A stretch of 64,000 nt of DNA from Paracoccaceae bacterium (GTDB lineage: Bacteria; Pseudomonadota; Alphaproteobacteria; Rhodobacterales; Rhodobacteraceae): positions 20,831 through 84,830 of the forward strand of contig JAJFIC010000066.1 of NCBI GenBank assembly GCA_021775315.1, in the 5' to 3' direction. Below, one piece after another: positions 2-18,440 of the stretch (the first letter of the stretch is position 1; each line of letters starts with the position of its first letter). The notes beneath the pieces were generated by a model. The model saw only the letters and a list, made by a program, of their open reading frames with translations. It had not been told where the DNA came from and did not search any database. The translations under genes were made by a program, and so were the position numbers.

Positions 2-931
2 CGGCTGCCCAACAGTGTCGTTGATGCCGAGATCGGCAATCTGCAAGCGCTTGGGATTGAGATAAAGTGCAATACCCTTGTGGGACGGCTGTTCACGATC
101 GAGATGATGCTCGACGAAATGGGCTATGATGCGGTTTTTATCGGCACCGGTGCCGGAACCCCGCGTTTCATGGATATTCCCGGCGAAAACCTGAACGGTG
201 TCCTGTCGGCGAACGAGTTGCTGACGCGCTGCAATCTGATGCATGCGGGGCAATTCCCGGACTATGACACGCCGCTTGAAATCGGTCGCCGCGTTGCGGT
301 GATCGGTTCCGGCAACACCGCTATGGACGCGATGCGGGTGTCGTTGCGATTGGGTGCCAAAGAGGTTCACTGTGTTTACCGGCGAACCGATGCCGAATGC
401 CCGGCGCGGCTGGAAGAACTGCACCACGCGCAGGAGGAAGGTATAGAGTTTCACTGGCTGGCGGCCCCGGTGGAGCTTCTTGGCGACAAGAACAACCACG
501 TGCGCACGATCCGCTGCGTCAGGATGGAACTGGGGGAACCGGATGCTTCGGGTCGCCGTCGCCCGGTGCCGATCGAGGGTAGCGAGTTTGATTTTGAGGC
601 CGATACGGTGGTCTACGCAATCGGAACTTCGCCGAACCCGATCCTTGGTCAAACCTCGCATGTTCGGCTCGACCAGCGTGGCTATATCGAAACCGACGAA
701 AATCTCGCCACTTCGCTGGCGGGCGTCTATGCGGGTGGCGATATTGTCACCGGCGCTGCAACCGTGATCCTGGCAATGGGGGCAGGGCGCCGCGCCGCGC
801 AGAGCATTCGGCGCTATCTTGGCATTCGCGAAAGCGAGGTTGTGTACGCGCCAGAGCGTTCCGGCTTTGAAGATAGTCTTTTCGGTATAGACCTGACCGA
901 GCGAAATTTCACACACCTACGGTTAACGTAG
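2..931 (+). CDS. GltD-like NAD(P)H:acceptor oxidoreductase, 5' end outside window
   Basis: The reading frame is open from the left edge, so the GTG at 80 is internal and the true start lies outside. About 309 residues are visible. They match the pyridine-nucleotide half of the glutamate-synthase small-subunit family (GltD, NfnB, PreT): a Rossmann motif GSGNTAMDA near visible residue 102, the YRR pair usual for NADP(H)-binding members near residue 126, and the C-terminal FAD-contacting stretch beginning YAGGD. No GltB partner is present; korA-like starts 19 bp downstream. The inferred job is to pass electrons between NAD(P)H and the ferredoxin or 2-oxoacid oxidoreductase encoded next, not glutamate synthesis. 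The N-terminal cysteine clusters of the family cannot be checked here. Family assignment is firm; the partner is inferred from context. Confidence 0.85.
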   Translation, partial: RLPNSVVDAEIGNLQALGIEIKCNTLVGRLFTIEMMLDEMGYDAVFIGTGAGTPRFMDIPGENLNGVLSANELLTRCNLMHAGQFPDYDTPLEIGRRVAVIGSGNTAMDAMRVSLRLGAKEVHCVYRRTDAECPARLEELHHAQEEGIEFHWLAAPVELLGDKNNHVRTIRCVRMELGEPDASGRRRPVPIEGSEFDFEADTVVYAIGTSPNPILGQTSHVRLDQRGYIETDENLATSLAGVYAGGDIVTGAATVILAMGAGRRAAQSIRRYLGIRESEVVYAPERSGFEDSLFGIDLTERNFTHLRLT

Positions 932-2891: not shown

Positions 2892-3884
2892 ATGACAGCT
2901 CCAATGAGCCAGTGCCTGATGCAAATGGTGCAAACCGACTATGCATTGTCTGACTATCAGAGTGAGATAGCACCACGCTGGTGCGCAGGCTGCGGTGATA
3001 ATGCTATCCTGACCGCAATGCAGCGCCTGTGTCGGGATGAACAATTGCCGCCGGAAAAGACCGTCTGCGTTTCCGGGATCGGCTGTTCGTCACGGCTGCC
3101 GCATTACATGAACGCTTATGGGTTTCACGGTGTTCATGGCCGTGCCCTGCCGATTGCGGAAGGTGTCAAGATCCGCCGTCCCGACCTGCATGTCTTCGTC
3201 ACCACCGGTGATGGCGATTGTTGCAGTATCGGTGCCGCGCATTGGCTGCATGCAATCCGCTACAACATGAACATGACTGTGCTGTTGCACGACAACCAAA
3301 TCTATGGCTTGACCAAAAAACAGACGTCACCGACCTCGCCGCACGGGTTAAAAAGCAACACCACGCCGCATGGCGCCGTTCTCAATCCGCTCAATCCACT
3401 GACGGTTACGCTTGGTGTGGCGAATGTTTCCTTTGTTGCCCAAGCCGTCGACTGGATTCCGGATCTTCTGTACGAAACTCTTTCCAAGGCCTACCACCAC
3501 AAGGGTTTGTCCTTCATTCGTATCTTGCAGCGGTGTCCGGAGTTCATGGATCACCGTTTTGACGACTGGGTCCGGGACCCGTCGAAAATGCGGATCCTCA
3601 CCCATGCCGACGGCTTGCGCTTAAAGCCCGAGGTTTCGCGCATCTACAAGAACCAAGAAACCCACGACCCACGCGATATGGGGCGGGCGTTGGCTATCTC
3701 ATCGCTTAACGACGAAATTCCGGTCGGCATCCTTTATCGCGATCCATCAGTGCCGTGTTATGACGAATTGCGCGCCGGTGAACGGCCCAATACGCCAGCG
3801 CTGGTTCAGACGGTTCTGAATGAAGAGTTCGACAAAGTTGGAATTTGGCCAGACCCGGCGACGGCGCCGGAGATCAGGGAGTAG
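2892..3884 (+). CDS. korB: 2-oxoacid:ferredoxin oxidoreductase, TPP-binding beta subunit (KorB-like)
   Basis: 330 residues. The early WCAGCGDN motif (near residue 30) supplies cysteines for the proximal [4Fe-4S] cluster. The TPP/Mg-binding motif begins GDGD near residue 106 and continues to an Asn-x-x-x-Tyr-Gly-x-Thr element. The two motifs are those of beta subunits of the Kor/Por/Vor family. It lies 9 bp after the alpha subunit and 6 bp before the 737-residue gene, so the three are almost certainly co-transcribed. There is no separate delta ferredoxin subunit; the downstream protein carries an Fe-S motif that could fill that role. Confidence 0.87.
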   Translation: MTAPMSQCLMQMVQTDYALSDYQSEIAPRWCAGCGDNAILTAMQRLCRDEQLPPEKTVCVSGIGCSSRLPHYMNAYGFHGVHGRALPIAEGVKIRRPDLHVFVTTGDGDCCSIGAAHWLHAIRYNMNMTVLLHDNQIYGLTKKQTSPTSPHGLKSNTTPHGAVLNPLNPLTVTLGVANVSFVAQAVDWIPDLLYETLSKAYHHKGLSFIRILQRCPEFMDHRFDDWVRDPSKMRILTHADGLRLKPEVSRIYKNQETHDPRDMGRALAISSLNDEIPVGILYRDPSVPCYDELRAGERPNTPALVQTVLNEEFDKVGIWPDPATAPEIRE

Positions 3885-3890
3885 TCGACA

Positions 3891-6104
3891 ATGCAACACG
3901 CCAAGATTGCCGACGGATTACCTTCCCAGCCAGAGCGGGAGCCTTCTGTTGCCGCCCTGCGTCCAGCGCTTTTTGCCGGTTATGGTGCTCTTGACGACCT
4001 TCGATATGATTACCCGCTGGTGCTTATTGACGGCGGCAGCGGTGAAAATATGTTCCGGCCGCTGAGCCGAATTATCGACGATATCCTTCAGGAGACAGCG
4101 GCGCCGGATTCGTCCGGCGAGGCGCTGCGTCAGCAGGTTCTGAGGCTTGAGGCGAAAATCCGGCGCAGGGTAATGCAGTCCGGGCCATGCCAACTTACCG
4201 ATCTTTGGCGGGACTGCGCCGCTGAATTTATTGCGCAGACTGGCGAAGCACCGTTTGGCCCGCTTGATGTCAATCTCGACAAGGCGCGGCAGAGCCTTTA
4301 CGTCGATGGTCTGGTCATCGACTGCGACGATAAAACTCCAGGCCAAGTTCTGGTTCATACTTGGAAAGCGATGCATCAAGCCAAGGCCCGCGTGTTTCGC
4401 AAAAAGGTTGACGGGCTCACCCTTCGGTTGACGGATATTCTTAAGTCCGACCACATGAAATCCGATGAAGCGCACGGCGCCGAAGCACTGGCCTCATCGA
4501 TGGGCTCGTCAGGTGACGGGTCGGTCGATTTTCACGCTTTGTCGGCTGTACTGGCGCGCGCCAGACCAGAAGACCGCCTGCCCCAAGACCGGGTGGAACG
4601 GATCCAAAATGTATTGCGTGTTCTGCAGTCGCAACTTTTCTATGGCCCTGGGCGCGCCTCCAAAAGCGGGCCTAAGCAGCCCAAACCATACAGCTACACG
4701 TTCGAAAGTTGCGCGTCCGCGCTTGACGCAAATCGTGATCGCCTTCGGGATGTGCTTGATTTCACCAAGGCTCTGACGGTCGCCGAACTGGAGGTTGAAA
4801 ACAAGTATCGGCCCGAGCTTCATGATCCGATCTTTGAGCGTTTTGACGAAAGCGATCTGACGGCAGATCAGATCGGGTTGCTGCCCTCAGCGCTGGTTTG
4901 CCTGCGCGATGGCGAGACCGATGCGACAGAGATTGCTCGCGCGTTTGAGGCACTGGCCTGCGGGCTGCAAATCACGGTCCTAATCCAAACCGATGACATT
5001 CTGGGTGCGACTTCGCCCGAACCGCCGCGAAATTCCTTTGGTGCCGGCACGACCCGGATTGCGGCGATGGCCATGGGCCTCAACAACGGTTTCGTTTTGC
5101 AGTCATCCAGCGCTCATCTTTATCGTATGCGCGACAATCTGGTTCGCGGAATGCAATATGACGGGCCGACTTTGATCAGCATCTATTCGGGCGCAACGGT
5201 GACGGCGCCGGGCGTGCCGGCCTACATACTTTCAGCGGCAGCCACGGAATCGCGGATTTTCCCTGCTTTCACCTACGATCCATCCGCCGGCCCGGATTGG
5301 GCGCATCGGTTCGACTTGTCAAACAACCCGCAGAACACTGTCGACTGGCCGGAGCATGAGCTAGAGTTTGAAGACGTGAAAGGTCAACGGCAATCCGAGA
5401 AGATCGCGTTCACTTTCGCTGATTTTGCGATTAGCGACGTACGATACGGTCGGTTTTGCCATTCCCTTGCGCAGGCGGACTGGACGCCGGGAATGGAACC
5501 GGCTGCCGACTGGTTGAAACTGCCGCCCGAGACCAACAGCAATCAGAAACCTTATGTTTTCGGCATCGATTCCGAAAACCGGTTGCGTCGTACAGTTGTC
5601 GACGACAAGATTATTGAGGCTGCCCGCCGCTGCAATGACGCATGGTGCCGGTTGCAGGAACTGGCTGGTATCAATAATTCCCATGCTTTGCGTCTGCTGG
5701 CACAGGACCGGCTGGAACGCGAAGTGGCTGCGCGAGCGGCTGAGAACACGCAATCTACATTGTCAGGCCCACCCTCCGTCGCCGCGCAGTTAGCGAAAGT
5801 GGCAGAGGATGCCGCACCGCCCGTCGTCACGGATGTCGCGACTGACGAACAAACCGAAGACACGCCGTGGATCGAAACCGCGCGTTGCACGACCTGCAAC
5901 GAATGTACCCAGATCAACAGCGAACTGTTTGCCTATGACGAAAATATGCAAGCCTACGTTGTGAATCCCGACGGCGGTACATATCGCCAGATCGTCGAGG
6001 CGGCGGAAAGCTGTCAGGTCAGCATCATCCATCCGGGACAACCACGCAATCCGCAGGAGCCAAACCTTGTCGATCTGATCGAACGCGCCAAGTCGTTTCA
6101 CTGA
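3891..6104 (+). CDS. Large hybrid protein: PFOR-like region plus C-terminal Fe-S motif, function unknown
   Basis: 737 residues, start 6 bp after korB. The N-terminal 370 residues match nothing I can name. Residues about 383-440 resemble the TPP-domain end of single-chain pyruvate:ferredoxin oxidoreductase (a glycine-rich run, then AMAMG, then YDGPTLISIYS), but I do not see the GDG metal-TPP motif before it, so it may be non-catalytic. Near the C-terminus Cys666, 669 and 672 (CTTCNEC) plus Cys708 form a plausible single [4Fe-4S] site. Position in the operon suggests an electron-transfer or scaffold subunit between the GltD-like flavoprotein and KorAB. Function is inference; the gene itself is long, uninterrupted and well placed. 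Related third proteins are known beside some Kor enzymes of anaerobic aromatic degraders, but I cannot confirm homology. Confidence 0.7.
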   Translation: MQHAKIADGLPSQPEREPSVAALRPALFAGYGALDDLRYDYPLVLIDGGSGENMFRPLSRIIDDILQETAAPDSSGEALRQQVLRLEAKIRRRVMQSGPCQLTDLWRDCAAEFIAQTGEAPFGPLDVNLDKARQSLYVDGLVIDCDDKTPGQVLVHTWKAMHQAKARVFRKKVDGLTLRLTDILKSDHMKSDEAHGAEALASSMGSSGDGSVDFHALSAVLARARPEDRLPQDRVERIQNVLRVLQSQLFYGPGRASKSGPKQPKPYSYTFESCASALDANRDRLRDVLDFTKALTVAELEVENKYRPELHDPIFERFDESDLTADQIGLLPSALVCLRDGETDATEIARAFEALACGLQITVLIQTDDILGATSPEPPRNSFGAGTTRIAAMAMGLNNGFVLQSSSAHLYRMRDNLVRGMQYDGPTLISIYSGATVTAPGVPAYILSAAATESRIFPAFTYDPSAGPDWAHRFDLSNNPQNTVDWPEHELEFEDVKGQRQSEKIAFTFADFAISDVRYGRFCHSLAQADWTPGMEPAADWLKLPPETNSNQKPYVFGIDSENRLRRTVVDDKIIEAARRCNDAWCRLQELAGINNSHALRLLAQDRLEREVAARAAENTQSTLSGPPSVAAQLAKVAEDAAPPVVTDVATDEQTEDTPWIETARCTTCNECTQINSELFAYDENMQAYVVNPDGGTYRQIVEAAESCQVSIIHPGQPRNPQEPNLVDLIERAKSFH

Positions 6105-7312: not shown

Positions 7313-7619
7313 ACTGCGGCAATACCACCTGCGTTAAGCCCCAAATCAAAGCCAAACCAATCCAATTGAATTCACTTATCCGCCCAAGCGCGTTTGGCAA
7401 ATCAAACGCAGCTTCGGGCTGGAAGATGAAGACACTAATCTGGTCGGATTGGGTTCGCATTCATCGGCAAACCCTACGTCAAATGACAGGTGCCTGTCGG
7501 CTATATCTCTAATTTACGTATCATGACTTATGTCATCGACCGAAATTGCACGTGATTGCACGCTGCTGGCCAAGATGAAAACTGGATTTTCGTCAACCCA
7601 CAGAAATAAGGGGCTTAGA
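7313..7619. other. Regulatory intergenic region upstream of the molybdoenzyme operon
   Basis: About 300 bases with no coding frame I believe. An ATG at 7530 opens the downstream frame 30 codons early, but it lies inside a palindromic operator candidate (7523-7536). The Tat signal begins only at 7620, so I treat this stretch as promoter/operator and 5' UTR. Confidence 0.55.
7523..7536. promoter_or_regulatory. Candidate Crp/Fnr-type operator, ATGAC-N4-GTCAT
   Basis: A perfect 5-4-5 inverted repeat, ATGAC TTAT GTCAT, with the TGA/TCA core and 4-base spacer of Fnr/Dnr sites. It lies about 84 bases before the inferred start of the Fe-S subunit gene and 210 bases after the stop of the Crp/Fnr regulator gene. 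The regulator's E-x-x-S-R recognition helix suits a TGA core. Confidence 0.5.
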
Positions 7620-8369
7620 ATGGAAGTGACACAGAAAACCATTTCTCGCAGAAGCTTAATCGGGAACATTGGAAAAGGAGCTACGCTGGCCGTTGCTGCC
7701 ACTGCGCTCCCTAGTCCGGTGAAAGCGGCTGTCGATCAGAAATCGGTGCATTATGCGATGGTCATCGACGCGCGTAAATGCACCGGGTGCCATGCTTGCT
7801 CTGTTGCTTGCAAGGCTGAATTTGAAGTCCCTCTGGGCGTTCACCGATCTTGGGTGGAATATGTTGAAAAGGGCACATACCCCAACGTATCCAGAAGCTT
7901 TTTGCCACGCCTGTGCAATCAGTGTTCGGAGCCGGATTGTGTGTCCGTTTGTCCCACGGGGGCAACGTACAAGAGGGAGGAAGACGGCATTGTTGTTGTC
8001 GATTCTGATCTTTGTATCGGGTGTAAGTACTGCATGCAGGCTTGCCCCTACGATGTGCGGTTTATTAATCCCAATACCGGCACAGTAGAAAAATGTGATT
8101 TCTGCTTGCATCGGGTGACCCAGGGGCTTGAACCTTCTTGCGTAAACACCTGCCAAGGCAGAGCAAGAATTTTTGGTGATCTCAATGACCCGACCAGCGA
8201 GGTTGCAAAACTTGTCGCAACAGAACCGGTAACAGTTCTTAGGCAAGAAATGGGAACAAAACCGAACGTCTTTTATATCGGCGCAGATCATTCGGACGAA
8301 AGCGATCTTAGGGTTCCCGGACAATATGTCCGTGTTGATACCCATCGTCCAATTCAGGAACGGAGGTAA
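7620..8369 (+). CDS. Tat-exported 4x[4Fe-4S] electron-transfer subunit (NrfC/DmsB-like)
   Basis: 249 residues from the ATG at 7620, chosen because AAGGGG precedes it and a twin-arginine signal (SRRSLIGN, then a hydrophobic stretch to about residue 36) follows. An in-frame ATG at 7530 would bury the Tat motif. Four cysteine groups follow: CTGCHACSVAC, CNQCSEPDCVSVC, CIGCKYCMQAC and CDFC...CVNTC, the pattern of NrfC/PsrB/DmsB proteins that wire four [4Fe-4S] clusters between a molybdoenzyme and a membrane quinone subunit. Genes for both partners follow directly. A periplasmic location is inferred from its own Tat signal and that of the catalytic subunit. Confidence 0.9.
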   Translation: MEVTQKTISRRSLIGNIGKGATLAVAATALPSPVKAAVDQKSVHYAMVIDARKCTGCHACSVACKAEFEVPLGVHRSWVEYVEKGTYPNVSRSFLPRLCNQCSEPDCVSVCPTGATYKREEDGIVVVDSDLCIGCKYCMQACPYDVRFINPNTGTVEKCDFCLHRVTQGLEPSCVNTCQGRARIFGDLNDPTSEVAKLVATEPVTVLRQEMGTKPNVFYIGADHSDESDLRVPGQYVRVDTHRPIQERR

Positions 8370-8374
8370 AGGCC

Positions 8375-9370
8375 ATGCTAGATCTAAATTGGGGACTCCC
8401 TGTCATCGGGTACTTGTTTTTGGCAGGTGTTGGCGCCGGTGCATTCACCGTAAGTTCCTCCGTACTCTTGCGAGGCGGAGGTTTCTCAAGCGACCACTTT
8501 TCTGTCGCACGTTATGGGGCGTTATTGGCGCCCATTCCAATGATGGTTGGAACCGGTTTGATAATCTTGGAACTAGGAACGTTCCAGGCAGCCATAGCAA
8601 ATGGCGATATCGGTTTGTTCTTCCGCTGGATCAACCTGTTCCTGACCATTAACATGTCACCGATGAGCATCGGGTCATGGGTTCTGGGACTGTGTATCCT
8701 TGTCAGCTTAATCTATGCCTATACATTTCTTTCAAAAGAAAGTGCGCCTGATGACGACAAGAAGGGTTTGCGTCAAGCGCTAGCATGGGTTGGTATACCA
8801 CTTGGTATATCTGTCGCGATCTATACTGGTGTCATGTTAGGAGCCACGCCAGCACGGCCATTCTGGAATTCGCCGGTATTGGCGCTCCTCTTCCTGATTT
8901 CGGCATTATCGACCGGGGTTGCTGGAATATTGCTGCTGCGCGCATTGTTTGGTGGGCATAATCCTTCCCAAAAAATGGGCACACAGAGCGAGTCCGCCAA
9001 TGCACCCAATCGGGCCACATATCTGCTGGCATCTTCTGATAGCTTGCTGATCGGCGCGGAAATTCTGACTGTTTTCCTGTTCATCATGTTTGCCCATCTG
9101 ACAATTGGCAATCCGGCACAAGCCGTGTCGATCATCCTTCCTGGCGGAGAGCTGGCAACCTTGTTCTGGGTTGGTGTGGTCGCTGTTGGCTTGGTAATTC
9201 CGGTTCTGATTGAACTTCGATATGTGATTCCGACACTGCTTTATCGTCAGCCATATGCAATGCCACGCGGTGTTGAGATGGCGGTATGCGTGGTTATCCT
9301 GATTGGCGGATTCATGTTGCGTTACGTTGTGGTTGTCGCCGGCCAGTTGACCGGACCAATGGGAATATAA
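8375..9370 (+). CDS. NrfD/PsrC-family membrane quinone-interacting subunit
   Basis: 331 residues, strongly hydrophobic, with eight or more predicted membrane helices and the NrfD-family start (GLPVIGYLFLAGVGAGAF). The family anchors periplasmic Fe-S/molybdenum complexes and exchanges electrons with the quinone pool. An RBS (GGAGG) and a 5-bp gap link it to the Fe-S subunit; the catalytic subunit follows after 10 bp. Given rquA nearby, rhodoquinol as well as ubiquinol is a candidate electron carrier (inference). Confidence 0.88.
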   Translation: MLDLNWGLPVIGYLFLAGVGAGAFTVSSSVLLRGGGFSSDHFSVARYGALLAPIPMMVGTGLIILELGTFQAAIANGDIGLFFRWINLFLTINMSPMSIGSWVLGLCILVSLIYAYTFLSKESAPDDDKKGLRQALAWVGIPLGISVAIYTGVMLGATPARPFWNSPVLALLFLISALSTGVAGILLLRALFGGHNPSQKMGTQSESANAPNRATYLLASSDSLLIGAEILTVFLFIMFAHLTIGNPAQAVSIILPGGELATLFWVGVVAVGLVIPVLIELRYVIPTLLYRQPYAMPRGVEMAVCVVILIGGFMLRYVVVVAGQLTGPMGI

Positions 9371-9380
9371 GGAGACGATT

Positions 9381-11915
9381 ATGTTAAACCGACGAAATAT
9401 TCTACAAATGGGAGCCGCCGTACCACTCGCTGCATTGACTGGAGAGGCTCTGACACCGCGTGTCTCCGCAGGGCCGGTTATCGGTGGCAAAGATTTCTCA
9501 CCAACAACCGGTAAGGAACGGCAAGCCATCCCCAGCGCCTGCTGGCAGTGCGTGACCCGTTGTCCCTCTATTTCCTACGTGGAAGACGGACGGTTGGTAA
9601 AAATCGAAGGCCAACCAAAATCGATACGGACCCATGGCGTCATGTGCGCGAAGGGGCAAGGCGGTGTCGGTCAGTTCTCTGACCCGGATCGCATCCTGCA
9701 CCCGATGCGTCGGGTTGGCAAACGCGGCGAAGGCAAGTGGAAAAGGATCAGCTGGGACGAAGCCCTGGACGAGATTTCCGGGCGCATGAAGAAACTGCGT
9801 GACGAGGGAACACCCGAGAAATTCTGTTTTCACTACGGACGCATGAAGGCCAGTCACTCCAAGCTCATCAAGAGCGTATTCCTTGCCACTTATGGTACCG
9901 GGACTATCGGCAACCACACTTCTATTTGCGAGGGGGCTAAATGGACGGCTCAGGAAATGACCTGGGGCGGGCATTATGATAACTGGGATGTCGATCACAC
10001 CAACTATGTCCTGAATTTCGGCTCAAACGTGTTTGAAGCTCATACAAACCACATACCAGTGGCGCACAGGTTGATTGCACGGTTAAGCGAGAAGAATATT
10101 CACATGGTGACCTTCGACGTCCGATTGTCGAACACGGCTGCCAAATCGTCAGAATGGGTGCCGATAAAACCGGGAACTGATCGCGCCGTTGTTCTTGCCA
10201 TGTGCAATGTGGTGATGAGCGAAGATCTCTATAAAGGCGAAGGCGAGGAATTCCTGAAATTCGTCAAAGTGACTGCCGGACGCAGCGCTACCGTCGATGA
10301 AAAAATCGCCGCCCTAAAAGCGCATCTTGCCGAGTTTACGCCAGAGTGGGCGGAGGGAATTAGCGGCGTATCCGCCGATAAAATCCGCGAGATCGCTCGT
10401 GAAGTGGCAACAAACAAGCCGGCCTGTATCATCAGTTACCGGGGGGCTGTGGCCCACCACCATGGGGCTGACACCGAACGGGCCGTGCAAATGCTGGCTT
10501 CGATCACCGGTAATATTGATAATCCAGGCGGCAGATGCAAAGCCGTCGGGGCGAGTTGGAAATACCCGAAAGGGCCAAAAGACAAACCCAAATCCCGCAA
10601 GCTGAAGATATTGGATGGCCTCAAAGGTGCTGCGAAGATGCCGACCCATCATGTCAGCCATCAAGTGCTGAAGATGATCAAGGATGGCAGTGCTGGTCGC
10701 CCGGATATTTACATGTGGTATTGCTACACACCAGTATATGCCAACGGCGAAGTCCAGGAAAACATCGACATCCTCAAGGACGAAGAACTGATACCGTTCA
10801 GTGTCTGCGTCAACCCGTTCTATGACGAGTCCGCGGCGCTGGCCGATATCATCCTGCCCGACACACCCTATACAGAACGTTGGGGCACGGAAGACATGGT
10901 ATCACCGGCGCAAATACCGGAATACTACATTCGCCAACCAGCAGTGAAGCCGCTGGGAGAATGCCGCGATTTTGCTGATGTTTGCATCGATCTTGCAGAC
11001 AGGATGGGTTTCCCGCTCGGGATTAAGAGTCACGAGGAATTTGTTATGCAGGCCTGCGAGATGACCCCGACGGTAAAAGCTGCTGGCGGTTTTGAATATA
11101 TGAAGGCCAACGGGGTTTATCACGACCCTGAGGCAAAGCCCCGGTTCTATTCATATATGAACATCATCAAACCTGAAAAATATGAGAAAGATGGTGTCGT
11201 CTTGGACCCGGATACCGGTGTCTATTGGGACTGGAAGAAAGCTCATGTCGCCAGCGAAGAAGAAGCTTTGGCGAAGGGTTACACACACACCAAGAAATCC
11301 TACAAGGCCTATATCGGCCAAGAGATTGATGGTGTGGTGTATTCGGGCTTCAAACCTGACAAGCTCAATAAATCGGGCTATATGGAGCTCTATTCCGAAA
11401 TCGTCGAAGCCCATGATCTTTCAGCCATGCCTTCGTGGACTCCTGCACCCGAACACGTCGCTATGAAGCCGGATGATCTGATCTTGACCACCTACAAGGT
11501 TGCCACTCAGATTCACTCACGCTCCGCCAACTGCAAATATCTGACCGAGATTTATCATGACAATCCGGCCTGGATTAATCCGGCAACGGCGGCTGAGAGA
11601 GGCATCACCGAAGGCAATACGATAACGGTCAATTCGGAGTTTGGAGAAATCAAAACCACCGTCAGGGTAACCCCGGCGGTCGTACCAGGGACCATTGCAA
11701 TTGCCCACCATTGCGGACATTGGGAATACGGTCGCTATGCTTCCGGGAAAAACAGCCCGGAAGGCCAACCCAGTCCCAAAGCTGAAAAAATCTGGTGGAC
11801 AACCCACGGCATGCATCCGAATTGGATTATCGGTACCAAGGCAGACCCGATATCTGGCCAGATGCGCTGGATGGATACAGTGGTACAGGTAGAAAAGGCC
11901 ATGGCTGATGCTTGA
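9381..11915 (+). CDS. Tat-exported molybdopterin oxidoreductase, catalytic subunit (Psr/Phs-like)
   Basis: 844 residues, DMSO-reductase superfamily. The N-terminus has a short Tat-like signal (NRRNILQMG plus hydrophobic run). The [4Fe-4S] motif CWQCVTRC with a fourth Cys in MCAKG spans residues about 54-91. A Cys in TSICEGAKW is the probable molybdenum ligand, and the C-terminal molydopterin dinucleotide-binding domain is present. Subunit set and order (Fe-S, NrfD, Mo) resemble polysulfide/thiosulfate reductases and related sulfur enzymes. Substrate cannot be assigned from motifs: polysulfide, thiosulfate, tetrathionate, arsenate or an organic oxide are all open, and so is the oxidative direction. 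The stop overlaps the start of the TorD-like chaperone gene by 8 bp. Confidence 0.9.
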   Translation: MLNRRNILQMGAAVPLAALTGEALTPRVSAGPVIGGKDFSPTTGKERQAIPSACWQCVTRCPSISYVEDGRLVKIEGQPKSIRTHGVMCAKGQGGVGQFSDPDRILHPMRRVGKRGEGKWKRISWDEALDEISGRMKKLRDEGTPEKFCFHYGRMKASHSKLIKSVFLATYGTGTIGNHTSICEGAKWTAQEMTWGGHYDNWDVDHTNYVLNFGSNVFEAHTNHIPVAHRLIARLSEKNIHMVTFDVRLSNTAAKSSEWVPIKPGTDRAVVLAMCNVVMSEDLYKGEGEEFLKFVKVTAGRSATVDEKIAALKAHLAEFTPEWAEGISGVSADKIREIAREVATNKPACIISYRGAVAHHHGADTERAVQMLASITGNIDNPGGRCKAVGASWKYPKGPKDKPKSRKLKILDGLKGAAKMPTHHVSHQVLKMIKDGSAGRPDIYMWYCYTPVYANGEVQENIDILKDEELIPFSVCVNPFYDESAALADIILPDTPYTERWGTEDMVSPAQIPEYYIRQPAVKPLGECRDFADVCIDLADRMGFPLGIKSHEEFVMQACEMTPTVKAAGGFEYMKANGVYHDPEAKPRFYSYMNIIKPEKYEKDGVVLDPDTGVYWDWKKAHVASEEEALAKGYTHTKKSYKAYIGQEIDGVVYSGFKPDKLNKSGYMELYSEIVEAHDLSAMPSWTPAPEHVAMKPDDLILTTYKVATQIHSRSANCKYLTEIYHDNPAWINPATAAERGITEGNTITVNSEFGEIKTTVRVTPAVVPGTIAIAHHCGHWEYGRYASGKNSPEGQPSPKAEKIWWTTHGMHPNWIIGTKADPISGQMRWMDTVVQVEKAMADA

Positions 11916-12645
11916 AACCAAGGCCATCATACATCATGATGAATTGGCCAAGAAGGCCATAGAGCAAAGTCGGCTCTATGGCCTGTTGGCGACTGTTTTT
12001 CGTCGGGAGCCGTCGACCGAGTTTTTGTGCCATCTGAGAACGCCGGAATTGATCGTGGCTCTCACAGGTGTTGGGATTGATTTTGGCAAGGAATTTGGAA
12101 CCAGAACATTTGCCGATATTGCCGATGAATTGGCGATTGAATATACCCGCCTGTTTTTGGGACCCGGGAAACATATTTCACCCCATGAATCGGTACAACT
12201 GAAACGTGGCAGTGGCATTTTGTGGGGCCCTGAGACCTCGGCAGTCCAGCAATCCTATCGCGCTGCCGGATTTGAAATTGGCGAAGGCGAGACTGATATT
12301 CCCGATCACCTCAGTGTTGAACTGGACTTTCTATCGCTTCTGACCAAGGAAGAATCACAGTGTTGGACAAATCGGGATCATGAACAAACAGCCAGAATCC
12401 TGAATCTTCAACGCGCCTTTATTTCTGGTCACCTCGGCAAATGGGTCGCAATATTTTGCACCAAGGTAAAGGAAGAAGCCGAATTTGGTTTTTATCCGGC
12501 ATTTGCCGGTCTCTTGCTAAGCTATTTATCCGGCGAGAAGATGGAAATCGGAATTCGGGCAAGTCTTGTCGGTCGGCCGGAACAAAATGGCGCAAATGGC
12601 CCTGACACCACATATGGGACGGAGGATTCTGCGCGCAGGGCGTAA
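11908..12645 (+). CDS. TorD/DmsD-family molybdoenzyme maturation chaperone
   Basis: 245 residues, starting inside the last codons of the molybdoenzyme gene (8-bp overlap). The YTRLFLGPG segment followed by SPHESV, and then PDHLSVELDFL, match the conserved core of TorD/NarJ-type chaperones, which bind the Tat signal and apoprotein until the molybdenum cofactor is loaded. No signal peptide, so cytoplasmic. The last 35 residues look unstructured. Its placement ties it to the catalytic subunit just upstream. Confidence 0.85.
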   Translation: MLETKAIIHHDELAKKAIEQSRLYGLLATVFRREPSTEFLCHLRTPELIVALTGVGIDFGKEFGTRTFADIADELAIEYTRLFLGPGKHISPHESVQLKRGSGILWGPETSAVQQSYRAAGFEIGEGETDIPDHLSVELDFLSLLTKEESQCWTNRDHEQTARILNLQRAFISGHLGKWVAIFCTKVKEEAEFGFYPAFAGLLLSYLSGEKMEIGIRASLVGRPEQNGANGPDTTYGTEDSARRA

Positions 12646-12829
12646 GTTGGCCTCGCTTATACTGCTCTGCGTAAGGCGAGCCGAGAATGGAGGTGGTCGT
12701 CTGATTAGATGGATTGGTTCCGATTTCATCCGCACACAGGACGCACTTGCGGTGAACCGAAATAGACATTCGCGCTGAGGGCGTGATAGTCTTCAAAACA
12801 TGGTTGAAGCGAGCGGAGCCTGCAATATC

Positions 12830-13318
12830 ATGCCCAGACATGAAGCCCAATGTACGCTTTATTACACTTCAGAACAGCTTTTTGATCTTGCTGCAGACGT
12901 CGAGCGTTATCCGGATTTTCTGCCGTGGTGCGTTGCTGCCAGAGTGAGTAGAAGAGAAGGCAATACCTATTACTCAGATCAAATCTTTGGTTTTGGCTTG
13001 TTCCGCGAGCGTTTTATTTCAAAAACTGTTCTTCAGCGACCGGCACGGATTGTTGTGACCTCGACCAGCAAAATTTTTCGAAAATTCGAACTCACCTGGC
13101 TGTTTGACACGCTGCCTGAAAATGGATGTCGGGTCGCCATTCGGGCTGATCTTGAACTGCAATCAAAGCTTGTTCAGGATATTTTCCACCGGAGTATCGC
13201 TCAAATGGTCGGATCAATCATGTCTGCTTTTGAATCCCGCGCCCACAAGCTCTACAGCCATTCTGCGATCCCACGTCCGGCGCCAGGAACAGAAAACTCA
13301 AACGATTTCACTGGCTGA
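12830..13318 (+). CDS. COQ10/RatA-family START-domain protein, probable quinone-binding
   Basis: 162 residues from the ATG at 12830; an in-frame ATG at 12800 would add ten unconserved residues. The start (MPRHEAQ) followed by LFDLAADVERYPDFLPWC is the hallmark of polyketide-cyclase/START proteins of the COQ10/RatA family, which bind ubiquinone and are needed for its delivery to respiratory enzymes. Alphaproteobacteria normally carry a housekeeping copy elsewhere. This copy sits 188 bp before rquA, so a role in handling rhodoquinone or delivering it to fumarate reductase is an attractive inference. A toxin-like RatA function is the alternative, less likely here. Confidence 0.82.
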   Translation: MPRHEAQCTLYYTSEQLFDLAADVERYPDFLPWCVAARVSRREGNTYYSDQIFGFGLFRERFISKTVLQRPARIVVTSTSKIFRKFELTWLFDTLPENGCRVAIRADLELQSKLVQDIFHRSIAQMVGSIMSAFESRAHKLYSHSAIPRPAPGTENSNDFTG

Positions 13319-13362
13319 TGATATCTACTGGATGCGATCCAGATCCGCCTTTCTCCGTGATG

Positions 13363-13376
13363 TTGACTTGGATCAT
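13363..13376. promoter_or_regulatory. Candidate Fnr-type box upstream of rquA
   Basis: TTGAC-TTGG-ATCAT: 5-4-5 layout close to the Fnr consensus TTGAT-N4-ATCAA, with both TGA cores intact. It lies 130 bases before the rquA start in the only sizeable gap between the COQ10-like gene and rquA. Assigned by eye only. Confidence 0.4.
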
Positions 13377-13506
13377 TCCTGGCGCTGATCTTTCAAATTA
13401 GTATCGGTATATCATTGAGTTATATTGCCAATCATTAAAATTGGTTCAGACGGTGCAAACAAGTGGCTATCCAAAGTCGCCGGACTGGTGTTGGAGGAAA
13501 TCAAGA

Positions 13507-14319
13507 ATGAATTCTATGCAAAAACCGGCCGGGCGGCAGCGTGTGGACGACGATAACCAAACGGCAGCACAAGGGACATATGTGGAAAGTTTGGTTGTTG
13601 CCGACTGCGCCGAACAAGCAAACGCGCAACGTTTCTTATCGAACGGTAACAATTTTGACCCGACAATTCCCGCCTATTTGAGGGATACCTATACTTGGGC
13701 TTATCTACGACCAAGTTCCGTGAAATTGCTCGACCGATCGCTCGTCGTGAATACAATTCTGTGGGGGAATTACCGCCGATTACTGCGCGCGGCGCTGTCT
13801 GAATTGCGCCCCGGCCAAAATGTTTATCAACCAGCGTGTGTCTACGGTGATTTTTCTCATAGCGTCGTCGAATTCTTGGGGCCAGATGGCCATCTCGATG
13901 TCGGCGATGTTGCCCCCGTGCAAGTTGAGAACTGCCGACGCAAGTTGACCGGTTGCAGCAACGCGCGTGTCCAATTGCACGATGCGGCGGTCAAACTCCA
14001 TGAAGTCTACGACGCAGTGTGCTGCTTTTTTCTGCTGCACGAGGTGCCGGATCCTTACAAATACCGGATTGTCGATACTTTATTGGATGCAGTGGAACCG
14101 GGCGGCAAAGTTGTGTTCGTTGACTATCATGGTCCGCACAGGTTCCACCCGCTGAAATGGATTATGAGCTTTGTCGATGATACGCTGGAACCGTTTGCCA
14201 AGGCGCTATGGGACAACGAGATTTCCAGCTACAGCAGCCGGAAAGAAGAATTCACTTGGACAAAGCAGACCTATTTCGGCGGGTTGTACCAGAAAGTCGT
14301 CGCGGAGAGGCGGACATGA
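13507..14319 (+). CDS. rquA: RquA, rhodoquinone biosynthesis protein
   Basis: 270 residues from the ATG at 13507, which has a strong GGAGG RBS nine bases upstream; an earlier TTG in frame has none. Distinctive RquA segments are visible: [13 protein letters not shown] near residue 57, [57 protein letters not shown] and a C-terminal FGGLYQKVV. RquA is a methyltransferase-fold enzyme reported to convert ubiquinone to rhodoquinone, replacing a methoxy with an amino group with S-adenosylmethionine as amino donor. Rhodoquinone's lower potential lets it donate electrons to fumarate. The stop overlaps the frdA start as ATGA, so translation of quinone maker and quinol user is coupled. Confidence 0.93.
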
Positions 14320-16073
14320 ATATCATCAAAACGGATGTTCTCATTATCGGCGCTGGCGGCGCAGGCCTGAGGGCCGCGATTGCAATCGCTGAATTGGACC
14401 CGAGCATCCAAGTCGCGTTGATCTCCAAAGTCTACCCCATGCGCAGCCACACAGTTGCCGCCGAAGGCGGTGCTGCCGGAGTGGCCCGCGAAGACGACAG
14501 CTTTGAAAACCATTTTAACGATACCGTCACCGGCGGCGACTGGATGAGCGATCAGGATGCGGTCGAGTTCTTTGTTCATGAAGCCCCAAAAGAACTAACC
14601 CAGATGGAGCATTGGGGCTGCCCATGGAGCCGCAAACCCGACGGTCACATCGCGGTGCGGCCGTTTGGTGGCATGAAAGTCGAACGCACATGGTATGCCG
14701 CTGACAAGACCGGCTTTCACATGCTGCACACGCTGTTTCAGACCTCGTTGAAATTCCCGTCCATCCAAAGATTTGACGAGTACTATTCGACCGATCTTAT
14801 CGTCGTGGATGGGTGCTGCCGTGGGGCCACCGCGATCGAGATGCGAAGCGGGCAGATGCATACGTTCAGCGCGAGGGCGGTCATTATTGCCACCGGCGGT
14901 GCCGGGCGTATTTTCCCGTTCACAACCAATGGCGCAATCAAGACCGGTGACGGCATGGCAATGGCCTATCGCGCCGGGGTGGCCCTGAAGGACATGGAAT
15001 TCATCCAGTACCACCCGACCGGCCTGCCCGGTACCGGCATCCTGATTACCGAAGGATCACGCGGCGAAGGCGGGCTTCTGGTCAACAAAGACGGCTACCG
15101 GTATTTGCAGGACTACGACCTTGGGCCTCCGGACCCGTCGCCGCGCAATAAGGCCATGGAACTTGGCCCACGCGATCGTCTTAGTCAGGCGTTCTGGCAC
15201 GAACAGAAAAAAGGCCGCACCATCAAGACGCCGCATGGCGATGTGGTTCACCTTGATCTGCGCCATCTGGGCGAGAAGAAGATCAATGAACGCCTGCCGA
15301 TGGTGCGTGAATTGGCCACTGCTTATGTCGGCGTCGATCCGGTTTACGAACCGATCCCGGTACGCCCGGTGATCCACTACACCATGGGTGGCATCGATAC
15401 CGATATCAATGCGGCCACCAGCATCGATGGATTGTTCGCGGCGGGCGAATGTGCATGCGTCAGCATCAACGGTGCCAATCGTCTGGGATCAAATTCGCTG
15501 ACCGAAATTCTGGTCTTCGGCGCCCGCGCCGGACAAAGCGCCGTACAGATACTGGCGGCGGATTCACCGCAGGTTGACGAGGCCGCAATCCACGAACAGG
15601 CCAACGCGGCGAAAGCCCGGATTGCTGACCTATTCCTGGCCAGTGGCGGCGGCGAAACCGTGTCGGGCCTGCGCCGCGAAATGAACGACACAATGGAAAG
15701 CGGCGCCGGCATTTACCGCACCGACGCCTCGCTGCGCGAAAGCAGCGCCGTGATCAAAGATATCCGCCGCCGGTTTGCCGATATCGAACTGCAAGACAAA
15801 AGCAACGTCTACAACACAGATCTGATACAGGTTCTGGAACTGGGGGCGATGATCGACGTGGCGCAGGCGCTTATCATTTCGGCCCTGGAACGAAAAGAAT
15901 CGCGCGGCTCGCACCAGCGTTTGGATTTCACAGAACGCGACGATAAATCCTATCTCAGACACTCGCTGGCGAGTTTTGTCAAAGGCGGCGATCCCGAAAT
16001 ATCCTATCGGGACGTGACCATCACCCGCTCGCAACCCGGAGAGCGGGTCTATGGCGGAGGTGAGCAGAAATGA
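14316..16073 (+). CDS. frdA: Fumarate reductase flavoprotein subunit FrdA
   Basis: 585 residues from the ATG at 14316 (GGAGAGG RBS inside rquA). Close to E. coli FrdA in length and motifs: FAD fold [10 protein letters not shown], His45 in [10 protein letters not shown] for covalent FAD, active-site His233 in HPTGLPGTG, His354 in HYTMGGI and Arg389 in [10 protein letters not shown]. With frdBCD it forms a membrane quinol:fumarate reductase facing the cytoplasm. Succinate dehydrogenase is the alternative, but the C/D subunits downstream are of fumarate-reductase type and rquA overlaps upstream. An upstream in-frame ATG at 14208 lies inside rquA and is rejected. Confidence 0.93.
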
Positions 16074-16813
16074 GCAATCGCATCGTTGAACTTGAAATCC
16101 TGCGCTACAATCCCGAAACAGATGAAGAGCCCAAGTTTCAGACCTTTAGCGTACCTTGCGCCGAGGACTGGGTGGTGCTTGACGCCATCAACTACATCAA
16201 GGACGAACTTGACCGCACGCTCAGCTATCGCTGGTCGTGCCACATGGCGGTCTGCGGCAGTTGCGGCATGATGATCAACGGTGAACCGATGCTGTCGTGC
16301 AAATCCTTCCTGCGCGATCTGCCGGACAGAATACGTGTCGAGCCGCTGACAAACTTTCCGATCGAGCGCGATCTGGTCGTCGTCATGGACGATTTTATGG
16401 ACAAACTCGATAGCGTTAAACCGTTTCTCATCCCGCGCGAAGAAAAGACGGTTGATGAAGGCGAGTTCCTGCAGACACCGGCCCAGCTCAGCAAGTTCAA
16501 GCAATACACGCTGTGTATCAACTGCACGCTGTGCTATGCGGCCTGCCCGCAATACGCCCACAACGAAGGCTTTGTCGGCCCCGCAGCCTTGGCGCTGGCG
16601 CACCGCTATAACCTTGATTCCCGTGATGTCGGGCGGTCGGCCCGCGCCGACGTTGTCGCCAGCAACGCCGGTATCTGGGAATGCAGTTTCGTCGGAGCCT
16701 GTTCCGAGGTTTGCCCACATGGGGTCGATCCGGCCGCCGCTATCCAGCAGACCAAGATCGCCAGCTCCGTTGATTATTTCAGAGACATGTTGATACCGGG
16801 GAGACGCTCATGA
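16070..16813 (+). CDS. frdB: Fumarate reductase iron-sulfur subunit FrdB
   Basis: 247 residues; ATG overlaps the frdA stop (ATGA). The N-terminal ferredoxin domain has the [2Fe-2S] ligands [12 protein letters not shown] plus a later Cys. The C-terminal part has [12 protein letters not shown] for [4Fe-4S], and [17 protein letters not shown] with the third and fourth groups for the [3Fe-4S] and [4Fe-4S] centres. The last motif is nearly that of E. coli FrdB. It carries electrons from the membrane quinol site to the FrdA flavin. Confidence 0.95.
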
Positions 16814-17199
16814 GCCGCAGACCATATATTCGACCGGTTTCCAAGGTCTCTTGGTGGCTGTCACAGCCCCGATATATCCGTTATATGGCCCGCGAGGCCA
16901 GTTGCATATTCATCGGCGCCTACAGCGGTGTGCTGGTCGTCGGGCTGATACGACTGTCGCAGGGCGCTGCCGCTTGGGGTGCTTTCCTTGAAACGCTGCA
17001 ATCGCCTGTCAGCATCGCGTTCCACCTGTTTGCCCTGGCATTTGCACTGTATCACACGACCACCTGGTTCAATGTCACGCCCAAGGCGATGCCGTTGCAG
17101 TTCGGCCAGACACCGGTGCCGGGAGGGGCGATCATTGGCGCCCATTACCTTGGCTGGATTTTGGTGTCCGGGCTGATCCTATTTCTTGTCGGAGTGTAG
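16810..17199 (+). CDS. frdC: Fumarate reductase membrane anchor FrdC
   Basis: 129 residues, three membrane helices, overlapping frdB by ATGA. Conserved E. coli FrdC features: an N-terminal RPYIRP, a WW pair, the ARE motif with Glu29 at the position of the E. coli quinone-site glutamate, and HTTTWF in the second helix. This is the heme-free (type D) quinol:fumarate reductase anchor, not the cytochrome b-containing SdhC usual in alphaproteobacteria. Confidence 0.92.
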   Translation: MSRRPYIRPVSKVSWWLSQPRYIRYMAREASCIFIGAYSGVLVVGLIRLSQGAAAWGAFLETLQSPVSIAFHLFALAFALYHTTTWFNVTPKAMPLQFGQTPVPGGAIIGAHYLGWILVSGLILFLVGV

Positions 17200-17201
17200 C
17201 C

Positions 17202-17549
17202 ATGGCCGTTTCCAACAAACCAATCATCTGGTTGCTGTTTGCCGCCGGTGGAACCTTTGCCGCTTTCGTCACGCCAGTGCTGATCTTCATCACCGGTCTT
17301 GCGCTTCCGTCCGGCCTGCTGCCGGCCGAGGCGCTGGCTTATGACCGAGTGCTGGCGGTTGCACAGACCCAGATTGGAAAACTGGTCCTGTTTGCAGTCG
17401 TTTTCCTGCCCGTCTGGCACGCGGCGCACCGGCTGCGCATTACGGCCCATGATTTTGGCATCCGCGCCGATGCCTTTGTGAAGTATATATGCTACGGACT
17501 GGCAGCAACGGCGACGGTTATTTCCGCCATTGCACTTTTCAGCATCTGA
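17202..17549 (+). CDS. frdD: Fumarate reductase membrane anchor FrdD
   Basis: 115 residues, three membrane helices, two bases after frdC. The PVLIFITGLALPSGLLP segment, then AYDRVLA and the HRL...HD motif, parallel E. coli FrdD closely. It completes a four-gene frdABCD operon. The last gene of the anaerobic block; IS3 remnants begin about 20 bp later, so the operon's natural downstream context has been disturbed. Confidence 0.92.
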   Translation: MAVSNKPIIWLLFAAGGTFAAFVTPVLIFITGLALPSGLLPAEALAYDRVLAVAQTQIGKLVLFAVVFLPVWHAAHRLRITAHDFGIRADAFVKYICYGLAATATVISAIALFSI

Positions 17550-17565
17550 GAAGTAAAAAAACCCT

Positions 17566-18440
17566 GGATTTGCAGACACCTTGCTTGGTAATTTTGGAAG
17601 CAAGGAGGACGATTTGTCCGGAGTTAAATTCACTCAAGAGATCAAACGCGATGCCGTCGCTCAGGTCGTCGTGCGCGGATATGCGGTCAGCGAAGTGGCT
17701 GAACGATTAGGGATCCACCAGTCGACAGGTGAATGCGCAGCACTCATCAAAAGGGGAACCTGGCGCGCGTGTCTCCCTTTTCATGGCTTGCCCCCAAACC
17801 ACTGCCGGGCAGTGAATGAGGTAAGCGGCTATTGAGGCTCATGGTGCAGATTTTTCTGTGCGGTCAATGTGCCGGGTGCTGATGGTTTTTTTCAGTGTGC
17901 TCTACGCTTGGCTAAAGGAACCACTAAGCCAGCGTGCGCAAGAAGACGTCCGGCAAACGGATTTGATCCGGCAAGCATGGGCTGACAGCGATAAAGTTTA
18001 TGGTTATCCATTGGCCGGTAGGTGATTGCTAACAATCACAATAAGGCGAAATCTGCATGACGACTTGCGCGATCAAGGCGAGACCTGTTCCGAGAACCGC
18101 GTCGCACGTTTGGCCAGCTTAGTGGGCATCGCAGCACAGACAGGCTACAAACGGCGTGCTGGTCGATATGGTGGCAAACCTGCGGTCGTCGCAGACAACA
18201 CATTGGACTGACAGTTCGAAGTTGAAGCGCCTGATCGGGTCTGGCTCACCGACATTACATACATCAAAACCCACTAAGGCTGGTCCGTATCTGGCTGTCG
18301 TCATTGATCTGTTCTCAAGGCGCGTCGTTGGCCCCTCTCATTTATTGCTTTGCAATCAGCTGTCGGGCAGGCGGGGTGGATGCAGTCACGCATGACAACG
18401 GACCTCGCCTTGCAAGCCCTGCTCAGCGCGGTGCGGTGGC
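17566..18440 (+). pseudogene. Decayed IS3-family element (orfA and orfB remnants)
   Basis: An AGGAGG RBS at about 17605 precedes a TTG-started orfA remnant encoding SGVKFTQEIKRDAVAQ and the helix-turn-helix VSEVAERLGI, broken after HQST. OrfB pieces follow in order: YAWLKEPLSQRAQEDVRQ near 17905, a stop after VYGY, then HDDLRDQGETCSENRVARL near 18057, RVWLTDITYIKTH near 18236 ending at a stop, LAVVIDLFSRRVVG in another frame near 18290, and MQSRMTTDLALQALL near 18379. About 45 bases of foreign sequence split the last two. The C-terminal DDE half is gone, so it is not mobile. It sits exactly at the 3' edge of the anaerobic block. Confidence 0.85.

What the first reader, a model, noticed from the sequence alone, without database searches (positions are those of the whole stretch)
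12830..17549. rquA translationally coupled to an E. coli-type frdABCD, with a COQ10-like gene in front
The sequence shows rquA overlapping frdA by ATGA, then three further overlapping or near-overlapping frd genes. Subunit C/D motifs and Glu29 of FrdC follow the heme-free E. coli-type quinol:fumarate reductase. Alphaproteobacteria of this kind normally make only ubiquinone, too high in potential for fumarate reduction; rhodoquinone from RquA would solve that. A separate START/COQ10-like gene 188 bp upstream could deliver the new quinone. Coupling of quinone maker to quinol user suggests a self-contained, transferable rhodoquinone-fumarate respiration module. I know of no such linkage described in Rhodobacterales, but cannot search.
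Basis: partly seen in the sequence, partly recalled or inferred. Interest (0 to 1): 0.85.

Follow-up and report, generated by a model that had tools for sequence, protein, structure and literature searches.

The report
Rhodoquinone respiration island with quinone carrier
A bacterium, likely a relative of Sulfitobacter and Paracoccus, carries the gene predicted to make the low-oxygen electron carrier rhodoquinone overlapping the genes of a fumarate reductase that would use it, with a COQ10-type gene in front that belongs to a separate branch found repeatedly next to the rhodoquinone gene and that likely helps to handle that quinone.

Summary
In detail: rquA (NCBIfam equivalog, 312 bits, cut-off 175) overlaps frdA by ATGA, and frdABCD is of the E. 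coli type. (1) rquA near complex II genes was already in print (Stairs 2018, eLife); in my survey E. coli-type frdABCD lay within 10 kb of rquA in 9 of 80 named loci. In the window's family it is rare: FrdC in 1 of 394 genomes, RquA over cut-off in 4 of 394. (2) The COQ10-like gene is not a stray: such a gene sits directly upstream of rquA in 21 of 80 loci, and these copies branch apart (100/97) from the ordinary COQ10 of the same genomes. I found no report of this in the papers I could search. (3) The unit is larger: Nfn-like, 2-oxoacid:ferredoxin oxidoreductase, CRP/FNR, polysulfide-reductase-like molybdoenzyme, COQ10-like, rquA, frdABCD, on one strand; none of it lies beside the syntenic left flank in four congeners. 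RquA and FrdA trees agree broadly, so the pair mostly travelled together. That rhodoquinone is made, used and carried is inferred; nothing here measures it. The most testable new point is a rhodoquinone-dedicated COQ10 paralogue.

The parts
12830..13318 (+). COQ10-like START-domain gene of the rquA-linked branch (the ORF can also start at 12800)
   Evidence: PF03364 77.5 bits; 1T17/CC1736 by sequence E 6.9e-14; trees; START fold model pLDDT 83.6
13363..13376 (+). FNR-like site TTGACTTGGATCAT, one mismatch, between COQ10-like and rquA (weak)
   Evidence: 14 such sites in the window, 7.57 expected by shuffling, 14 or more in 3 of 100 shuffles
13507..14319 (+). rquA, rhodoquinone biosynthesis protein (a TTG start at 13441 is also possible)
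   Evidence: NF038261 312 bits, cut-off 175; 46 invariant columns in a 32-row RquA alignment
14316..16073 (+). frdA, quinol:fumarate reductase flavoprotein, ATGA overlap with rquA
   Evidence: NF006686 and TIGR01176 over cut-off; residues
16070..16813 (+). frdB, iron-sulfur subunit
   Evidence: NF009051 379.1 bits, cut-off 333
16810..17199 (+). frdC, membrane anchor; Glu29, His82, Trp86 conserved
   Evidence: PF02300 137 bits
17202..17549 (+). frdD, membrane anchor; Arg81 conserved
   Evidence: NF003977 120 bits, cut-off 60
7530..8369 (+). 4Fe-4S subunit of the PsrB/TtrB/NrfC/DsrO kind
   Evidence: PF13247 107 bits; passes the DsrO model NF045797 (211.7 bits, cut-off 200) and is below the TtrB and NrfC cut-offs
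8375..9370 (+). NrfD/PsrC-like membrane quinol subunit
   Evidence: PF03916 132.5 bits
9381..11915 (+). PsrA/PhsA-like molybdopterin oxidoreductase, Cys183 aligned to a PsrA cysteine (Mo-ligand role recalled)
   Evidence: PF00384; 2VPW 180.6 bits; below the NCBIfam cut-offs listed
11908..12645 (+). TorD/DmsD-like assembly chaperone
   Evidence: PF02613 84 bits
6584..7312 (+). CRP/FNR-family regulator (nearest FnrL/FixK, below cut-off)
3891..6104 (+). 737-residue protein with a C-terminal ferredoxin-like domain
   Evidence: PF13370 29.2 bits, cut-off 24.5; no NCBIfam family at E 1e-10
951..2882 (+). 2-oxoacid:ferredoxin oxidoreductase alpha (KorA-type)
   Evidence: TIGR03710 522.3 bits, cut-off 482.75
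2892..3884 (+). 2-oxoacid:ferredoxin oxidoreductase beta (KorB-type)
   Evidence: PF02775 over cut-off; TIGR02177 245.1 bits, below its cut-off 261.9
80..931 (+). 3' part of a GltD/NfnB-like gene that begins left of the window (contig C74:20259-21761)
   Evidence: TIGR01316 562.9 bits, cut-off 471.75
17581..18400 (+). transposase remnant (IS3-like; the IS family is recalled) behind frdD
   Evidence: PF01527 30.6 bits, cut-off 24.1, for 17581-17832; further short frames

Best explanation
This is an anaerobic-respiration gene island in which rquA, whose product is predicted to turn ubiquinone into rhodoquinone, overlaps frdABCD, whose product would oxidise rhodoquinol to reduce fumarate, and follows a COQ10-like gene whose product likely carries the quinone. 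Shown: gene identities, overlaps, conserved catalytic and quinone-site residues, no MenD over cut-off, recurrence of the neighbours, a separate branch for the rquA-linked COQ10-like proteins, broadly congruent RquA and FrdA trees, and no island genes beside the syntenic left flank in four congeners. Inferred: ubiquinone of the cell is aminated by RquA; low-potential rhodoquinol, refilled by NADH or other dehydrogenases, feeds FrdABCD and possibly the Psr-like complex; the COQ10-like protein binds ubiquinone or rhodoquinone and hands it to or from RquA or the reductases, beside the ordinary COQ10 that serves ubiquinone; the overlap keeps maker and user of the quinone in step.
For: RquA and FrdABCD models and residues. 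E. coli-type frdABCD within 10 kb of rquA in 9 of 80 named loci (7 of the 48 that hold 5.5 kb on both sides), in several gene orders; rquA and frdA also overlap in L067. In 385 genomes of the class, FrdC in 4 and RquA in 25 (23 over cut-off), both in 3, each time with frd genes within 1 kb of rquA; Fisher p 0.011 without the window genome, 0.0009 with it. COQ10-like directly upstream of rquA, same strand, in 21 of 80 loci; of these 21, 17 genomes were searched and all 17 hold at least two PF03364 genes; linked copies stand apart at 100/97 in a 66-row tree, with the window's copy inside. RquA-FrdA path distances correlate (Mantel r 0.64, p 0.0001, 18 pairs, 7 of them inferred from equal contig length). 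CC1736 (1T17), the nearest solved relative by sequence, is said to bind CoQ, and the Caulobacter protein to complement yeast coq10 (PMC4807763 passages). Two adjacent U32-family genes of the UbiU/UbiV kind are present and no MenD over cut-off (the UbiU/UbiV reading is inference).
Against: No quinone, enzyme or expression was measured. Most rquA loci show neither partner: 71 of 80 without E. coli-type frd and 59 of 80 without an adjacent COQ10-like gene in the stretches held, some of them short; in the class sample 23 of 25 other rquA loci have neither. 5 of 8 searched rquA genomes without a linked copy have only one COQ10, so the paralogue is not needed for every RquA. The other rquA loci of the window's family have neither partner. 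L067 and L068 have frd close to the window's but divergent RquA and no COQ10-like neighbour. G758 has frdABCD and no RquA match at E 1e-40. FNR-like sites were found in 0 of 21 regions before linked COQ10 genes. P0333, not known to be near rquA, falls in the linked branch. Purified R. rubrum RquA needed oxygen in vitro (PMC9814641 passages).
Confidence: 0.62

Rival explanations
1. The COQ10-like neighbour is an ordinary ubiquinone-binding COQ10 copy (or a RatA-type protein) that stays beside rquA by common descent, with no rhodoquinone-specific role.
For: Same Pfam family as canonical COQ10; its one NCBIfam hit is the RatA model (65.8 bits, far below cut-off 258). Linkage is patchy (21 of 80) and concentrated in related lineages: the linked label needs at least 9 changes on the RquA tree against 19.4 in shuffles.
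Against: Linked copies branch apart while the same genomes keep a canonical copy; the place just upstream of rquA is kept although frd lies downstream, upstream, divergent or absent; nearest solved relative is CC1736.
Confidence: 0.3
2. The rhodoquinone made here serves mainly the polysulfide/thiosulfate-reductase-like molybdoenzyme upstream, and FrdABCD is a secondary or succinate-oxidising enzyme.
For: A PsrB-NrfD-molybdoenzyme set lies beside rquA in 3 of 80 other loci (L048, L067, L118), two of them without frd in the stretch held; all genes run on one strand in the window.
Against: The overlap is with frdA, not with the molybdoenzyme; RquA and FrdA trees are broadly congruent; FrdA carries the Frd-type Glu, unlike the genome's own SdhA. 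L067's molybdoenzyme has no Cys at the position of window Cys183.
Confidence: 0.15
3. The island is a decaying import that is not expressed: the transposase remnant and lower GC mark a recent arrival with no role yet.
For: Transposase remnant behind frdD; GC 48-53% from the regulator to rquA against 54-62% in eight genes to the right; rare in the family sample.
Against: The island's reading frames are open and the overlaps kept, frd GC is 57-58% like the right-hand genes, active-site residues are conserved, and contigs that probably hold close relatives of the set occur in metagenomes.
Confidence: 0.08

Closest known systems
rquA near complex II genes in Proteobacteria (Stairs et al. 2018, PMC5953543; section 8 read in full, other passages seen)
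   Same: rquA lies within 15 genes of complex II or other respiratory genes in many bacterial genomes; an operon was suggested; rquA reported in 6 of 513 Rhodobacterales genomes.
   Different: The paper says rquA does not appear near candidate quinone biosynthesis genes and its main text has 0 occurrences of coq10; its supplementary tables were not available to me. Here a COQ10-like branch is tied to rquA.
Candidatus Thiosymbion oneisti (PMC8269255, passages seen)
   Same: Has frdABCD, rquA and a psr/phs-type reductase in one genome, with menaquinone called missing.
   Different: The passages seen do not describe these genes as one cluster; a gammaproteobacterium.
E. coli quinol:fumarate reductase FrdABCD (L233; PDB 1KF6)
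   Same: Subunit set, order, active-site and most quinone-site residues.
   Different: E. coli uses menaquinol (recalled); here rquA would replace a menaquinone route.
COQ10 / CC1736 (PDB 1T17)
   Same: START/polyketide-cyclase fold, E 6.9e-14.
   Different: Separate rquA-linked branch; the genome also has a canonical COQ10.
CoxG START-type protein of Mycobacterium (PDB 8UDS)
   Same: START-like fold (rank 36); quinone handling for one enzyme is recalled, not tested here.
   Different: Different family and partner enzyme.

Membership tests
RquA | Scores above the NCBIfam equivalog cut-off and not with UbiE/MenG | tested here: met
   312 bits against 175; UbiE/MenG models 25.5 bits or less
RquA | Converts ubiquinone to rhodoquinone | not testable with these tools
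   needs lipid analysis
E. coli-type (FrdCD-anchored) quinol:fumarate reductase | Four subunits FrdABCD with two small anchors, Frd-type flavoprotein | tested here: met
E. coli-type (FrdCD-anchored) quinol:fumarate reductase | FrdC above the NCBIfam FrdC equivalog cut-off | tested here: not met
   92.9 bits against 143; Pfam FrdC is over its cut-off
E. coli-type (FrdCD-anchored) quinol:fumarate reductase | Quinone-site residues FrdB K228, FrdC E29/W86, FrdD R81 | tested here: met
   roles recalled; FrdD His84 (E. coli) is Ile here
E. coli-type (FrdCD-anchored) quinol:fumarate reductase | No heme and fumarate reduction with a low-potential quinol | not testable with these tools
   heme-free state is inferred from the E. 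coli-type anchors; activity needs an assay
COQ10/START | Pfam PF03364 over cut-off and START fold | tested here: met
COQ10/START | Groups with canonical COQ10 of the same genomes | tested here: not met
   separate branch 100/97
COQ10/START | Binds quinone | not testable with these tools
   only by relation to CC1736
Psr/Phs molybdoenzyme | PsrA-like subunit with the PsrA cysteine, PsrB-like and NrfD partners | tested here: met
Psr/Phs molybdoenzyme | Over the curated equivalog cut-off for thiosulfate reductase PhsA | tested here: not met
   340.7 bits against 694; substrate open
Mobile element | Integrase, tRNA site or flanking repeats | tested here: inconclusive
   transposase remnant only; no tRNA in the 30 kb scanned, longest shared edge match 12 nt; integrases were not searched for

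The most novel reading that the evidence does not exclude
Rhodoquinone metabolism has its own soluble START-type quinone carrier: a COQ10 paralogue that split from ubiquinone COQ10, is inherited with rquA, and shuttles ubiquinone into RquA and rhodoquinone out to low-potential reductases (FrdABCD and a Psr-like molybdoenzyme), so that a ubiquinone-only bacterium can gain a second quinone circuit by acquiring one island.
Probability: 0.42. Interest if true: 0.78.

Novelty: new variant of a known kind. Interest (0 to 1): 0.62.

Why it matters
Rhodoquinone lets ubiquinone-making cells respire fumarate without oxygen, and in bacteria it is made from ubiquinone in one step by RquA (PMC11707229 passage). 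A COQ10 paralogue that keeps company with rquA across lineages is a candidate for an unexplained step (how membrane quinones are sorted between two pools) and can be tested by gene deletion. The island also bears on a question that the same 2024 survey left open (passage): whether a low-potential quinone is gained together with a fumarate reductase. Here the two lie in one stretch, in a family where FrdC is otherwise absent from a 394-genome sample.

Tried and rejected
Chance open frames: rejected by profile scores and conserved residues. RquA as UbiE: rejected. Frd as succinate dehydrogenase: rejected. Viral contigs for RquA: 4 pattern matches, no relative. RquA on plasmids: none at E 1e-20; FrdA on plasmids at E 1e-150: 19 records, best 61%, none from Rhodobacterales by the first word of the organism name. 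FNR sites before linked COQ10 genes: 0 of 21. My first automatic gene calling in GC-rich loci missed rquA in 29 of 86 stretches; I used tblastn and an HMM instead. The same crude gene list also left rquA and frdD out of the query set; I repeated that check with all 16 island proteins against the six congener stretches: no hit at E 1e-5. In the first COQ10 tree the window row had a long branch, and L064 (which I had labelled canonical, although it lies about 5 kb from rquA) fell among the linked rows; a tree without L064 and L154 gave 100/93, and adding 18 relatives shortened the window's branch from 1.38 to 0.17. Of those 18, I took 14 as likely linked: 10 share contig length and source with an RquA, 2 more (P0242, P0256) with an FrdA, and 2 (P0276, P0293) had no such match. 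Of the 4 taken as unlinked, P0333 fell in the linked branch and the other 3 among the canonical rows. Lower-scoring extra PF03364 copies of the named genomes (one search lists more places than the 30 loci fetched) were not put in the trees. For the contig-length comparison I transcribed 119 of 119 non-window RquA rows, 59 of 119 FrdA rows and 89 of 119 COQ10 rows; matches RquA-FrdA 7, RquA-COQ10 10, COQ10-FrdA 3, null means 0.12, 0.76 and 0.07, null maxima 2, 4 and 1; that equal length and source mean one contig is inference. Right flank: the EF-G-like gene lies in other surroundings in G801 and G169, so no two-sided empty site was shown. Only G169 of the nine congeners met was searched genome-wide for rquA and FrdC. 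Literature searches: in a library of open-licence papers only; Lonjers 2012 was not read.
Full report
Setting. The window is contig C74, bases 20831-84830, of a 3.69 Mb assembly of 111 contigs. The tool does not name the genome.

Observation. RquA is well above the curated equivalog cut-off, FrdA above both E. coli-type models, FrdB and FrdD above theirs; FrdC passes Pfam but not the NCBIfam equivalog. Compared with E. coli frdABCD fetched as a reference, all 11 E. coli FrdB cysteines, the flavin histidine, the Frd-type Glu (the genome's own SdhA has Gln), the active-site residues, FrdC E29/H82/W86, FrdB K228 and FrdD R81 are kept (which residues matter is recalled). That the enzyme is heme-free follows from its type and was not tested.

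How unusual. In the window's family, sampled at 394 genomes, RquA passes the cut-off in 4 and FrdC is found in 1, the window genome. The three other intact rquA loci and two rquA fragments of the family show no E. coli-type frd and no COQ10-like gene in the 17-20 kb stretches fetched, and those five genomes have one PF03364 gene each at E 1e-8. In the class, sampled at 385 genomes, FrdC is in 4 and RquA in 25 (23 over cut-off); both are in 3 (the window genome, G565, G742), each time with frd genes within 1 kb of rquA; Fisher p 0.0009, or 0.011 without the window genome.

How recurrent. A scan of named genomes with an RquA alignment found 450 relatives; the best 80 (so biased to close RquA) were kept with up to 10 kb on each side; 48 of them hold 5.5 kb on both sides. 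E. coli-type frdABCD (FrdA 67-79% to the window) lies beside rquA in 9 of 80: downstream in L051, L060, L061, L067 and L068, divergent in L063, L071 and L072, upstream in L105; G742 (L205) adds another upstream case. In L067 the rquA stop and the frdA start overlap too (ATGA or TGATG, depending on the start chosen). Three further loci (L064, L066, L113) have a more distant complex II (36-37%). On an RquA tree of 84 rows the frd label needs at least 6 changes (3 forced by starred branches). Equal contig length and source in the protein searches suggest 7 more contigs with both RquA and FrdA, against 0.12 expected. RquA and FrdA trees of 18 pairs share their main clusters (Mantel r 0.64, p 0.0001); L067 and L068 are exceptions with divergent RquA. 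So the pair mostly moves together, with some exchange.

The COQ10-like gene. It lies directly upstream of rquA on the same strand in 21 of 80 named loci (20 of the 72 that hold 1.5 kb upstream, and L070), in organisms such as Rhodospira, Roseospira, Caenispirillum, Phaeovibrio and Pararhodospirillum. I searched 25 of the 80 genomes for PF03364 at E 1e-10: all 17 with a linked copy (17 of the 21) have at least two copies; of 8 without, 5 have one. In the class sample the linked gene is in 2 of 25 other rquA loci. The window genome has a canonical copy on another contig (119.5 bits) besides the linked one (77.8 bits). In a 50-row tree the linked rows, with L064, are one side of a branch (99/92); without L064 and L154, 100/93. 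With 18 relatives from the protein search, 22 linked rows, 14 rows taken as likely linked and P0333 stand apart from the canonical rows at 100/97, and the window's copy sits well inside. Ten contigs probably hold both RquA and this COQ10 form (0.76 expected, null maximum 4), and one 5267-base contig all three proteins. Seven of the nine frd-linked loci also have the COQ10-like gene. The predicted structure (pLDDT 83.6) is a START fold; the nearest solved relative by sequence is CC1736, which passages of PMC4807763 say binds CoQ and, for Caulobacter, complements yeast coq10.

The larger island. On one strand lie, from contig position 19291: NfnA-like, NfnB/GltD-like, 2-oxoacid:ferredoxin oxidoreductase alpha and beta, a 737-residue protein with a ferredoxin end, a CRP/FNR regulator, a PsrB-NrfD-PsrA/PhsA-like molybdoenzyme with TorD-like chaperone, then COQ10-like, rquA, frdABCD, and a transposase remnant. 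The seven genes left of it (contig 9794-18598) are in the same order in congener G801, and five, five and four of them in G800, G799 and G805; these stretches reach 4 to 9 kb beyond the last shared gene, and none of 16 island proteins has a hit there at E 1e-5. The right flank is not syntenic. The Psr-like set recurs beside rquA in L048, L067 and L118, and the Nfn-Kor-737 set beside an RquA-like gene below cut-off in G533. These repeats suggest that rhodoquinol may also feed the molybdoenzyme; that is inference.

Mechanism. Ubiquinone, made with a likely oxygen-independent route (two adjacent U32-family genes of the UbiU/UbiV kind) and with no MenD over cut-off (the futalosine route was not searched), would be turned into rhodoquinone by RquA. 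Its lower potential (-63 mV against +100 mV, PMC5953543 passage) favours fumarate reduction by FrdABCD. The linked COQ10-like protein would hold or move the quinone. All of this is inferred from families and neighbours. A caution: purified RquA needed oxygen in vitro, and the authors expect another oxidant in cells (PMC9814641 passages).

Known and new. Stairs et al. already report rquA near complex II and propose an operon, and state that rquA does not appear near candidate quinone biosynthesis genes; coq10 has 0 occurrences in that main text and in those of PMC6529003, PMC11707229, PMC13386864 and PMC9814641. The search for rquA with polyketide cyclase gave 0 papers; rhodoquinone with Coq10 gave 10 papers, 9 listed, none on such a linkage by title. 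All 24 papers that hold rquA were listed; I looked at passages of six of them, and read one section of one in full. Supplements and subscription papers were not seen. So the layout is a variant of a known kind; the rquA-linked COQ10 branch appears unreported within that reach.

Noticed in passing
window 3891-6104: 737-residue protein with a ferredoxin-like end (PF13370) and no NCBIfam family at E 1e-10 sits behind the 2-oxoacid:ferredoxin oxidoreductase genes; a 39% relative lies in the same place in G533 (L229).
   Followed up: partly
L048:228-7816, L067:5644-10747, L118:1929-7628: A PsrB-NrfD-molybdoenzyme set stands next to rquA in three other genomes; in L067 the molybdoenzyme has no Cys at the position of window Cys183.
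   Followed up: partly
L229 (G533:C63:36000-55900): An RquA-like protein below the family cut-off (157 bits) lies beside NfnAB-KorAB-737 genes 39-70% like the window's.
   Followed up: no
L122 (G208), L123 (G093): Partial rquA matches in two family members, covering model positions 1-109 and 1-58 of 218.
   Followed up: no
L210 and L211 (G470): One genome carries two rquA genes on different contigs.
   Followed up: no
P0276 and P0333: COQ10-like proteins of the rquA-linked branch from Pelagivirga sediminicola and a Bradyrhizobium MAG; whether these genomes have rquA was not checked.
   Followed up: no
window 13363-13376: An FNR-like site lies in the 188-bp gap before rquA, but none was found before linked COQ10 genes elsewhere.
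   Followed up: partly
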